A DNA stretch of 64,000 nucleotides from Crocinitomicaceae bacterium (GTDB taxonomy: Bacteria; Bacteroidota; Bacteroidia; Flavobacteriales_G; Salibacteraceae): positions 62,001-126,000 of the forward strand of contig PAVO01000039.1 of the NCBI GenBank assembly GCA_002713215.1. Direction: 5' to 3'. This document shows, piece after piece, positions 21,033 to 22,757 of the stretch. A program made the position numbers and the translations under genes. The notes beneath the pieces are model-generated. The model was not told the DNA's origin. It made no database searches and worked only from the letters and a program-made list of their open reading frames with translations. Every line of letters starts with the position of its first letter. Positions within the stretch are counted from its first letter, which is position 1.

Positions 21033-21848
21033 TTAGAACAGGGAAGTTTGTGTTATATGCTTGGGATGAAAGGTTCCAATAATCACAAACGGATTTGGCG
21101 CTGTATTATGATGAACCAACGTTGTACCTAAAAACAAGTATAGGTCCTTGGTTTTTGCAAAATCATCAAAATATTTCTTCTTTACATCTTCGCATGCCAA
21201 TTCTTCATTCCCATGATTCCGCTTTAAAGAATTCCAAAATAATTGTCCTATTTCCCAATCTTCGATCATCATAGTACTTTCTTTTCCTTTTTCATCTACC
21301 AGTTTGTATGAAAATTTGTAGGGCAATTTTTTCACCACCTGAAACTTGCCTTTTTCCTGAGATTCAAAGAGGTTCAATTGATTAAGCTTGTCAAGTTTCT
21401 CTTTACTCCATTCTCGCTTAACCGCTTTAATTTCAAACTTTTTGATTTCCTTAGGTTTGAATACAGCCAAAGATGTCCCTATGCTTCTATCCTTAGCTTC
21501 ATCAATTAAAAGCTGGAGATCGGTATATACATTGTTAAGAACCATTTTTCGCCTTTCTAGCCAGGCATCACCATCAGGTTTTATCTCTCCAATAATTTTG
21601 ATCTCGGTATCATGGGTAGTTGGACGAAAACTTTCTACTCGAAAATCACTATCATTTTTGACTACATCGATTTCAATCCACTGGTATTTTGAATACTGTT
21701 GGCTGTAGGCCTTTTTTCGAAACTGAACCGGGTAAATCCTTATCCAAGATCCATCTTCCCTAAATCCTGCGGTGCAGACTAATTCGTTGTATTTTGCAGA
21801 AATTGACGGATAGGTTTTGACGGTTATAAGTACTTTCTCTTTTGGCAT
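21033..21848 (-). CDS. Conserved unknown protein, second gene of the DUF488 cassette
   Basis: The 271-residue cytoplasmic protein starts with a compact beta-rich segment (KVLITVKTYPSISAKYNELVCTAGFR, then EDGSWIRIYPVQFRK) and ends with a distinctive block, LYLFLGTTLVHHN followed by PNPFVIIGTFHPK. I have an impression that proteins with these two blocks recur beside DUF488 genes in unrelated bacteria, but I cannot assign a domain name. Its start codon overlaps the stop of the upstream DUF488 gene by one base (TAATG), which indicates translational coupling and a shared function. No signal peptide or membrane segment is seen. Nucleic-acid-related or defence roles are possible but unproven. Confidence 0.75.
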   Translation of the reverse strand: MPKEKVLITVKTYPSISAKYNELVCTAGFREDGSWIRIYPVQFRKKAYSQQYSKYQWIEIDVVKNDSDFRVESFRPTTHDTEIKIIGEIKPDGDAWLERRKMVLNNVYTDLQLLIDEAKDRSIGTSLAVFKPKEIKKFEIKAVKREWSKEKLDKLNQLNLFESQEKGKFQVVKKLPYKFSYKLVDEKGKESTMMIEDWEIGQLFWNSLKRNHGNEELACEDVKKKYFDDFAKTKDLYLFLGTTLVHHNTAPNPFVIIGTFHPKHITQTSLF

Positions 21849-22744
21849 TATAAGTTGGTTATTTTAATATTCCAATTTGGAAGTTTTTTAAGGCTCTTAA
21901 CTACACGACTTCGATGACACATGCACGCTTCTTTCTCAAAACAGGTTAAGGCTACTCTTGAGTATTTTTCAAGCAAATCTGAAACCTCAAGAATGGAATC
22001 ATGATTTTCTTTTAATGTGCTTTTTTCATATTCCTCGAACAACTTTTCGTAATCCTTTAACGAATTGAGTTTCTGCCTCTTATTAGACTCAATTCCAAGT
22101 TTAGGAATATGCAGGTATTTAATCCCAATACTTTCACACGCGTTCTTTAACTGGTTTTTTGAAAACCCATATTTCATGCTCAACGAATTCTTCCTAACAT
22201 CGCAAAGTAGTTTCACATCATTTAGAATGAGTTTATTTACATAGGTCTCTAGGCTTACCCCCTCATACCCCAAGGTAAAAAGATGTTTTTCCGATATTGA
22301 TCTCCTTTGTAATTGAACTTTTCTTAGTTGTTCTTTATTCAACAGGTCATCAGCTATTTGGCTGTTAATAGCATAAAATGGATAATTAATATATGTATGT
22401 TTAATTAACTCCCTTTGACTAAGTCCCTTAATCTCATTTTTCGTGGTAAGAATTGCGGCTTGATCTTCTTTATTTAGTTGGTTAAAAAAGTTTTCAGGAT
22501 AAATAATTCTCCATTCACTGGAAACCTTTGTAAGATGACTTTCGATAAACCCACGCTTTGTCATGGTCATTAAGTCTTGATTCGCTTGAAATGAAAAGCT
22601 TCCATATTTATATGGAACAAAATCAAACGATTTTCTAGACTGTTTTCTGGTTACAAGAAAAAGAATTTTCTGAAGATTCGTGTGATTCAGCTTTCCTTCA
22701 AATTTTTCTAAAATTCCAAGCAGTAGTTTTCGTCTGTAATACAT
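21848..22744 (-). CDS. DUF488 protein with an extra N-terminal domain, first gene of a coupled cassette
   Basis: The 298-residue protein has two parts. Residues 1-70 (LNHTNLQKILFLV, then FVPYKYGSFSFQANQDL, then KRGFIE) resemble the small helical domains of SocA/Panacea-like proteins (tentative). Residues 150-298 are a DUF488 domain: FTLGYEGVSLETYV, LLCDVRKNSLS, FSKNQLKNACESIGIKYLHIPKLG, and the cysteine-bearing end CFEKEACMCHRSRVV. DUF488 has no firmly established activity; the Cys/His/Arg-rich end looks like an active or metal site. It is coupled to the next gene through a TAATG overlap. A -7 promoter box lies 5 bases before the ATG, so the mRNA may be nearly leaderless. Confidence 0.82.
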   Translation of the reverse strand: MYYRRKLLLGILEKFEGKLNHTNLQKILFLVTRKQSRKSFDFVPYKYGSFSFQANQDLMTMTKRGFIESHLTKVSSEWRIIYPENFFNQLNKEDQAAILTTKNEIKGLSQRELIKHTYINYPFYAINSQIADDLLNKEQLRKVQLQRRSISEKHLFTLGYEGVSLETYVNKLILNDVKLLCDVRKNSLSMKYGFSKNQLKNACESIGIKYLHIPKLGIESNKRQKLNSLKDYEKLFEEYEKSTLKENHDSILEVSDLLEKYSRVALTCFEKEACMCHRSRVVKSLKKLPNWNIKITNL

Positions 22745-22749
22745 TTTGG

Positions 22750-22757
22750 CAAAATTA
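22750..22757 (-). promoter_or_regulatory. Bacteroidota -7 box TAATTTTG for the DUF488 cassette
   Basis: An exact minus-strand TAnnTTTG match ending 5 bases before the ATG at 22744, predicting a leader of only a few bases. No -33 TTG at the usual distance. Confidence 0.4.

What the first reader, a model, noticed from the sequence alone, without database searches (positions are those of the whole stretch)
21033..22744. Translationally coupled DUF488 plus unassigned partner cassette
The stop of the DUF488 gene and the start of its partner share one base (TAATG). The first protein carries an extra N-terminal domain that looks like SocA/Panacea-type helical domains, and the second has conserved-looking blocks (AGFREDGSWIRIYP, PNPFVIIGTFHPK) without a domain name I know. 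A -7 box lies 5 bases before the first ATG, so the cassette is a compact, self-contained unit, as mobile defence or toxin-antitoxin-type modules often are.
Basis: partly seen in the sequence, partly recalled or inferred. Interest (0 to 1): 0.72.

Follow-up and report, generated by a model that had tools for sequence, protein, structure and literature searches.

The report
Panacea-DUF488 plus tandem-OB defence-candidate pair
Two touching genes make an enzyme with an antitoxin-like handle and a DNA-binding-type partner; the pair travels between unrelated microbes and phages, is already on a list of suspected virus-defence systems, and how it works is not known.

Summary
On the minus strand, gene A (22744-21848) and gene B (21848-21033) share one base (TAATG), and TAATTTTG ends 5 nt before A. 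The pair is PADLOC phage-defence candidate PDC-M19 (A 5.5e-120, B 3.3e-126): a new member of a known, unexplained kind. A = Panacea-like winged-helix domain (profile-profile 95.5%; fold nearest DarG C-terminal domain, Z 13.2) + DUF488, a rhodanese/phosphatase-like enzyme. B models as two OB folds, like ssDNA-binding proteins, perhaps related to Pfam DuOB, which also sits beside DUF488. A (or part) accompanies B in 102 of 104 scan loci; on plasmids and a phage B pairs with short DUF488 genes. In Gordonia phage Nymphadora B-DUF488 fills the repressor-linked slot that holds RexAB in Sidious and is empty in LonelyBoi. New here: A's promoter puts the predicted transcript start at the ATG (55 of 104 A genes; 4 of 634 other ORFs). 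B is damaged or not found in 12 of 42 genomes with A intact in all 42; a second set, chosen by B similarity, shows no such bias (2 against 2). My reading: a defence cassette in which A restrains B. Defence and toxicity are untested; defence-island enrichment is unproven.

The parts
21848..22744 (-). Gene A: Panacea-like domain fused to DUF488 (PADLOC PDC-M19A), 298 aa
   Evidence: model pLDDT 94.9
22319..22744 (-). A residues 1-142: winged-helix, Panacea-like domain; nearest solved fold DarG C-terminal domain 7yk3_B
   Evidence: Z 13.2, rmsd 3.8, 140 aligned; hhalign to Panacea profile 95.5%, E 1.4e-8
21851..22294 (-). A residues 151-298: DUF488, rhodanese/PTP-like Rossmannoid domain; invariant G159 Y160 E161 D182 R184 H212 G217 R223 C268 E270 C276 H277 R278
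21033..21848 (-). Gene B: tandem OB-fold protein (PADLOC PDC-M19B), 271 aa
   Evidence: model pLDDT 92.0
21588..21848 (-). B residues 1-87: first OB fold; C25 A27 G28 R37 P40 K54 W57 D68 R70 E72 are invariant in 62 sequences
21054..21542 (-). B residues 103-265: second OB fold with inserted helices
   Evidence: RMI core rows align 103-265, Z 7.0; middling
21846..21850 (-). TAATG junction: stop of A and start of B share base 21848
22750..22757 (-). Bacteroidota -7 box TAATTTTG, 5 nt before the A start; predicts a leaderless A transcript
   Evidence: spacing rule from passages of PMC6847099

Best explanation
The cassette is a mobile two-gene anti-phage candidate (PADLOC PDC-M19). B, a tandem-OB protein, is the nucleic-acid-contacting arm (ssDNA or DNA ends) and the costly component. 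A is its partner: the Panacea-like domain holds B directly, as Panacea antitoxins and the DarG C-terminal domain hold their toxins, and the DUF488 enzyme does chemistry on the sugar or phosphate of what B binds or makes. Phage infection would release or trigger the complex. A's own promoter sits on its start codon, so the cassette can work wherever it lands. Shown: anatomy, folds as models, constant pairing, mobility, a slot shared with RexAB in phages. Inferred: binding of B by A, the substrate, the trigger, the cost of B, and defence itself.
For: PADLOC models match A and B full length. Panacea-like and DarG-like N-terminal domain. Rhodanese/PTP-like fold with invariant CxE...CHR. B models as two OB folds; the ten PDB rows with VIA Z 8 or more are OB proteins that bind DNA, as I know them (Teb1, telomere-end proteins, SSB, RPA, a HIN domain). 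A is next to B in 20 of 21 B-matched genomes; A or part of it lies beside B in 102 of 104 scan loci, with 1.7 kb between in L066, and the other 2 cut by contig ends. Pairing with DUF488 persists in other gene orders in 7 of 8 plasmid and phage regions read. Gordonia phages: the same slot holds B-DUF488, RexAB, nothing, or other genes. B damaged or not found in 12 of 42 genomes with A intact in all 42.
Against: No functional data. No clear defence-island excess. Paired-alignment mutual information gave no A-B interface. In other lineages DUF488 lacks the Panacea-like domain and faces B tail to tail, unlike a classical toxin-antitoxin operon. B sits in Sulfolobus pSOG2 with no DUF488 detected next door. 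In the 104 scan loci (chosen by B similarity) damage is even: B in L047 (stop) and L066 (5' end lost), A in L026 (stop) and L071 (N-terminal part lost), both in L125. Foldseek TM-scores for B are low (about 0.25 over the whole model).
Confidence: 0.42

Rival explanations
1. DNA-end processing pair without any toxin: B binds ssDNA or DNA ends, DUF488 is the effector that removes or transfers an end group (for example on phage DNA), and the N-terminal domain of A (Panacea-like, XRE-HTH or none) is only a docking or DNA-binding module.
For: B's best OB matches include end- and ssDNA-binding proteins. The N-terminal domain is exchangeable: Panacea-like here, XRE HTH in Streptomyces L137, none detected in L018 and the Pseudomonas and Massilia plasmids. 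A prediction of DNA-end processing by the RapZ-C/DUF488/DUF4326 clade is recalled from Burroughs and Aravind 2023; that paper was not held.
Against: Does not by itself explain why B rather than A is missing or damaged in the A-first set.
Confidence: 0.32
2. Genome-maintenance or stress-response accessory rather than defence: a DNA repair helper spread by plasmids and phages.
For: Isolated position among ordinary-looking genes in the window; no clear island excess; A present without a detected B in up to 5 of 42 genomes.
Against: Patchy distribution (full A in 6 of 41 close genomes incl. own), foreign GC, phage slot shared with RexAB, PADLOC listing.
Confidence: 0.15
3. Autoinhibited single-protein effector: the Panacea-like domain in A is a phage sensor that restrains the DUF488 enzyme (as in fused toxin-antitoxin CapRel), and B only delivers it to DNA.
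For: Fusion of an antitoxin-like domain to an enzyme; CapRel precedent for a fused sensor-antitoxin (passages of PMC9712102; its own domain is a pseudo-zinc finger, not shown there to be Panacea).
Against: If A were the toxic part, A should decay at least as often as B; A is intact in 42 of 42 in the A-first set, though that set was chosen by A.
Confidence: 0.11

Closest known systems
PADLOC PDC-M19 (phage-defence candidate M19)
   Same: Both genes match full length
   Different: Nothing at the level of this locus; 0 papers in the library name PDC-M19, so no mechanism was found
PADLOC PDC-M45 / Pfam DuOB with DUF488 genes
   Same: DUF488 beside a dual-OB protein (4 of 5 DuOB loci; PDC-M45B 4.1e-86 and M45C 2.9e-68 in L143); shared VCTAG..G..IR.yP block by eye
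   Different: Two stand-alone DUF488 genes and no Panacea-like domain; B to DuOB similarity is weak (hhalign 27-40%, E 3e-4 to 7e-4); the DuOB proteins themselves hit M45A only weakly (L142, 0.0014) or not at all (L143, L144)
DarTG toxin-antitoxin system (DarG)
   Same: Enzyme domain plus a DarG-C-terminal-like domain in one protein (Z 13.2)
   Different: DUF488 instead of a macro domain, order reversed, partner is an OB protein and not the ADP-ribosyltransferase DarT
PanAT (Panacea) toxin-antitoxin systems
   Same: Panacea-like domain in the upstream gene of a two-gene unit
   Different: No GPV signature in the window protein (YGSFS), extra enzyme domain; OB-fold and DUF488 are not mentioned in PMC8832971 (term counts 0; passages read)
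Lambda-type RexAB / CarolAnn 43-44 prophage exclusion
   Same: In Gordonia phages the B-DUF488 pair occupies the repressor-linked slot that holds RexAB in Sidious
   Different: Unrelated proteins by blastp; no RexB-type membrane protein seen in the pair
ARPP of ADP-ribosylglycohydrolase systems (PMC9503650, section 31 read)
   Same: A partner of rhodanese-phosphatase enzymes with conserved Cys and Gln
   Different: Described there as a beta-meander with inserted barrel; B models as tandem OB; no direct comparison was made

Membership tests
PADLOC PDC-M19 | Full-length matches to M19A and M19B models | tested here: met
   A 1-297 to 1-293 of 294, 5.5e-120; B 1-271 to 1-269 of 269, 3.3e-126
PADLOC PDC-M19 | The two genes adjacent | tested here: met
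PADLOC PDC-M19 | Anti-phage activity | not testable with these tools
   No experiment; 0 papers name PDC-M19 in the library
DUF488 (PF04343) | Score above Pfam cut-off | tested here: met
   78.6 bits against 22.2
DUF488 (PF04343) | Conserved Cys/CHR motif and rhodanese/PTP-like fold | tested here: met
   C268 E270 C276 H277 R278 invariant in 71 sequences; laforin 4r30 Z 8.8, 117 aligned, 3.1 A; PRL-2 Z 8.7. Z near 8 is middling
SocA_Panacea (PF13274) | Pfam match over cut-off | tested here: not met
   No PF13274 hit at E 1
SocA_Panacea (PF13274) | Profile-profile similarity to Panacea proteins | tested here: met
   95.5%, E 1.4e-8, 110 columns; DUF488 and B profiles against Panacea 0.3% and 0.1%
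SocA_Panacea (PF13274) | GPV signature motif (PMC8832971) | tested here: not met
   Window has G48-S-F; of the motif only G48 is invariant in 71 sequences; a GP appears in L020 alone among the rows
DarG | Macro (ADP-ribosyl glycohydrolase) domain | tested here: not met
   No such Pfam match; NCBIfam DarG hit covers only model positions 182-261 of 338, 22 bits against cut-off 250
DarG | C-terminal domain fold | tested here: met
   7yk3_B Z 13.2, rmsd 3.8, 140 aligned; Foldseek E 1.2e-4 to 7yk3_D; by sequence profile only 11%, E 2.7e-3
DuOB (PF22557) | Pfam match over cut-off | tested here: not met
   PF22557 is not among the 21 families matched at E 1 by 62 B sequences; Sulfolobus B 18.7 bits, cut-off 27
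DuOB (PF22557) | Two OB folds | tested here: met
   Model and matches, (rows over both domains Z about 7 to 8)
DuOB (PF22557) | Homology by profile comparison | tested here: inconclusive
   27% and 40%, E 7e-4 and 3e-4, only 4 DuOB rows
Type II toxin-antitoxin system | One gene toxic alone, neutralised by the other | not testable with these tools
   Only indirect: B missing or damaged in 12 of 42, but even damage in the scan loci
ARPP | Fold of duplicated beta-meander with inserted barrel | tested here: inconclusive
   B matches OB folds; no ARPP structure was compared

The most novel reading that the evidence does not exclude
A is a DarG-like dual antitoxin built from unrelated parts: a Panacea-like domain that binds B plus a rhodanese-family enzyme that undoes what B does to nucleic acid, while B is a tandem-OB (RPA/telomere-end-like) toxin of an abortive-infection system, a kind of toxin I know of no example for. 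The antitoxin is made from a conserved leaderless mRNA, which could keep it translated when normal initiation fails during infection.
Probability: 0.2. Interest if true: 0.78.

Novelty: new member of a known kind. Interest (0 to 1): 0.52.

Why it matters
DUF488 is still a 'domain of unknown function' in Pfam. Here it is tied by genome context, in bacteria, on plasmids and in phages, to a dual-OB protein, and in one phage group to the position of a RexAB exclusion system. That gives an assayable hypothesis for PDC-M19 and PDC-M45 together, a candidate substrate class (ssDNA or DNA ends), and a first guess at which gene is the harmful one. The conserved start-codon promoter is a rare, checkable feature of how such cassettes may stay portable.

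Tried and rejected
Defence-island test: PADLOC scan of 130 neighbours in 12 cassette loci against 142 genes in 12 control stretches of the same contigs. Cassette side: 178 family models matched, largest counts mad2 4, MTase_I 3, Specificity_I 2. Control side: 119 models, mad2 2, the rest shown 1 each (DRT, MTase_II, AbiE and others). The models are redundant and only the top 25 are shown, so I read no clear excess and no exclusion of one. A further 148 neighbours of 40 of 45 eligible loci matched 289 models (one SNF2 helicase alone 38; REase_MTase_IIG 5, Specificity_I 4, mad5 4), without a matched control. ORFs under 90 aa and over 700 aa (900 aa) were left out.

Interface by mutual information on 106 pairs (Neff 79.7): top inter-protein scores scattered, not enriched in the Panacea-like domain (17 of 60, 29 expected). 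Flanking repeats and tRNA genes: nothing convincing. No near relative was compared to show an empty site in the window's own lineage.

Pfam stray hits of B (Chp1-like_PIN, Big_10 and others) rejected as weak and scattered. PDB by sequence: no hit for A or B alone at E 1; profile hits weak (2jpu E 0.28; DarG 7yk3_B E 0.085). ARPP considered and set aside on its described fold. I first took Gordonia gp44 ('immunity repressor') for the A homologue: wrong; the DUF488 is the convergent gp42. CarolAnn 43/44 considered as a possible B homologue: rejected, they are described as membrane and DUF4747-like proteins.

B-loss counts: a sign test by hand (about 11 independent events against 0, p about 0.001) is not given weight as proof. 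The 42 genomes were chosen by A, and one search used E 1e-40, which would hide badly damaged A there; searching by B found B without full A only as a 22-residue remnant (G458), a weak hit (G057) and beside a short DUF488 (G050). One partial A-like match with six stops (G415) is ambiguous. Frameshifts in G432 and G534 may be assembly errors, G278 and G215 lie near contig ends, G011 and G016 share one stop. G224 and L069 have no stop in B but an unclear start, and were counted intact.

Full report
What is there. On the minus strand of the window, A (298 aa, 22744-21848) and B (271 aa, 21848-21033) overlap by one base at TAATG. Upstream stands a Bacteroidota -7 box, TAATTTTG, 5 nt before the A start. 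Neighbours look ordinary: a DUF3276 gene and a protein whose C-terminus looks to me like a T9SS sorting domain (read by eye, not searched). A has the lowest GC (0.327) of 37 mechanical ORFs of at least 200 aa in the window (mean 0.401, sd 0.026), and B (0.363) the third lowest, so the unit looks acquired.

Names. PADLOC lists both proteins as phage-defence candidate PDC-M19 (A 5.5e-120, B 3.3e-126). [quoted passage not shown] 2021 (passages of PMC11811056), some as found by guilt by embedding (abstract passage of PMC12988326). Two other PDCs tested in a native host showed no evidence of defence (passages of PMC12409345). No paper in the library names PDC-M19; 25 name DUF488 (listing; the DUF488 passage was read in one, PMC12704722). 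A 2023 analysis of the rhodanese-phosphatase superfamily by Burroughs and Aravind, which I recall as predicting DNA-end processing by this clade, was not held; anything taken from it is recollection.

Protein A. The AlphaFold model is confident (pLDDT 94.9). Residues 151-298 hold DUF488, with a rhodanese/PTP-like fold (CobF Z 10.4, CbiL 10.0, laforin 8.8, PRL-2 8.7). G159, Y160, E161, D182, R184, H212, G217, R223, C268, E270, C276, H277 and R278 are invariant in 71 sequences. Residues 1-142 match the DarG C-terminal domain (7yk3_B, Z 13.2, rmsd 3.8; Foldseek 1.2e-4). A profile of this domain against Panacea proteins fetched gives 95.5%, E 1.4e-8; against DarG proteins 11%, E 2.7e-3; DUF488 and B profiles against Panacea 0.3% and 0.1%. 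The Panacea GPV signature is absent in the window protein, and Pfam's own model does not match. I call the domain Panacea-like, not a Panacea member.

Protein B. The model (pLDDT 92.0) is two OB folds. Foldseek's leading PDB matches are RPA, Teb1 and CST, down to 1.3e-4, but with whole-model TM-scores of only about 0.25. The ten rows with VIA Z 8 or more are OB proteins as I know them: Teb1, telomere-end proteins, SSB, RPA and a HIN domain; best Z 8.7 for residues 1-87. In the viral library three of the four best hits are named LEF-3. Z near 8 means a shared fold at most, not a shared function. Conserved across bacteria, phage and an archaeal plasmid (14 sequences): P14 S17 C25 G28 R37 P40 D68 R70 E72 S73 W96 R99 D197 W198 G241. 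The Sulfolobus homologue touches Pfam DuOB (E 0.0019, under cut-off). In 4 of 5 Bacteroidota DuOB loci DUF488 genes lie next to DuOB, two of them in three loci (one search shows a second one in the fourth, G044). In L143 they match PADLOC PDC-M45B and M45C; in L142 one matches M45B best and the other M19A. Against the link: the DuOB proteins of L143 and L144 hit no PADLOC model at 0.01 and that of L142 only M45A at 0.0014, no window-like B hits DuOB, and profile comparison is suggestive only. I infer, without proof, that M19 and M45 are two builds of one DUF488 plus dual-OB system.

Pairing and spread. B was found in 21 of 296 Bacteroidota genomes; A lies next to it in 20 of the 21, once as a short DUF488 (L018), the exception L021 being a weak hit. 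A or part of it lies beside B in 102 of these 104 loci, 1.7 kb away in L066; L031 and L117 are cut by contig ends. Spacing in 104 pairs, not de-duplicated: 34 overlapping, 66 at 0-10 nt, 4 farther. Among 41 close genomes 7 match A including the own one, one of them (G331) only by a weak DUF488 match; of 24 other same-family genomes one has A, at 46% identity, while a same-order genome has 62%. B is also on 22 plasmid records and in 7 Gordonia phage records. Of these I read 8 regions: a short DUF488 convergent with B in Rhizobium, Streptomyces (with an XRE-type HTH), Pseudomonas, Massilia, Arthrobacter and the Gordonia phage; co-directional in Fischerella; none detected in Sulfolobus pSOG2. The Panacea-like profile found nothing in these 8 regions. 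Neighbours in 19 of 24 viral-contig loci (5 left out as apparent near-duplicates) include terminase, portal and head-protease genes, so at least some carriers are phages.

A telling phage slot. In Nymphadora, and by 100% identical DNA in Eviarto, BatStarr, TimTam and Herod, the immunity repressor gene overlaps B, B overlaps the convergent DUF488, and a metalloprotease-HTH pair follows. In Sidious the same place holds genes annotated RexA and RexB family, in LonelyBoi nothing, in BaxterFox other genes. The flanks are homologous: repressor 78% (Nymphadora-Sidious) and 71% (Nymphadora-LonelyBoi), metalloprotease 78% and 37%, the small HTH gene 56% and 81%; in BaxterFox the repressor match is short, but the other two match. 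In CarolAnn, a Gordonia phage of another cluster, genes co-expressed with the repressor are a defence pair shown by deletion (passages of PMC6426606); by their description they are not homologues of B or DUF488. This is position evidence for prophage-expressed defence, not proof.

Leaderless A. Over 104 A genes with distinct upstream DNA (exact duplicates removed), T-12, A-11, T-8, T-7, T-6 and G-5 relative to the start codon stand out from weakly conserved flanks; TAnnTTTG ends 4-5 nt before the start in 55 of 104, against 4 of 634 other first-ATG ORFs of at least 200 aa. A starts were set by a motif there; with the same first-ATG rule for both, it is 37 of 65 A genes against 4 of 634, and still 4 if any ATG in the first 60 codons may count. 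In Flavobacterium johnsoniae the same positions are counted from the transcription start, with 4-5 nt spacing (passages of PMC6847099). So the A transcript should begin at or next to the ATG. Leaders under 10 nt are about 3.7% in B. thetaiotaomicron (passage of PMC7366714) and leaderless mRNAs 5.5% in F. psychrophilum (passage of PMC9723704). A -33 element is not evident (a TTG at suitable distance with the box in 11 of 104). No transcript start was mapped.

Which gene is costly. Of 42 genomes with full-length A, B is intact in 30, damaged in 7 (stops in G137, G011, G016, G162; frame changes in G432, G534; remnant in G278) and not found in 5 (G340, G400, G215, G718, G611). A shows no stop in any of the 42. 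Searching by B in the same class sample, all 20 genomes with more than a 22-residue match are among the 22 with A. In the 104 scan loci, chosen by B similarity, there is no bias: B is damaged in L047 (stop) and L066 (5' end lost), A in L026 (stop) and L071 (N-terminal part lost), both in L125. The first set fits B as the burdensome part, but it was chosen by A, and A-only loci could be functional. I hold this as a lead.

Mechanism. I commit to a defence cassette in which B contacts nucleic acid and is harmful when free, A restrains it through the Panacea-like domain, and DUF488 acts on the sugar or phosphate of B's target or product. The strongest rival is a plain DNA-end processing pair. My odds are 0.42 and 0.32.

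Verdict. Ordinary in being a listed candidate; unusual in the combination of parts, the phage slot and the start-codon promoter. New member of a known, unexplained kind.

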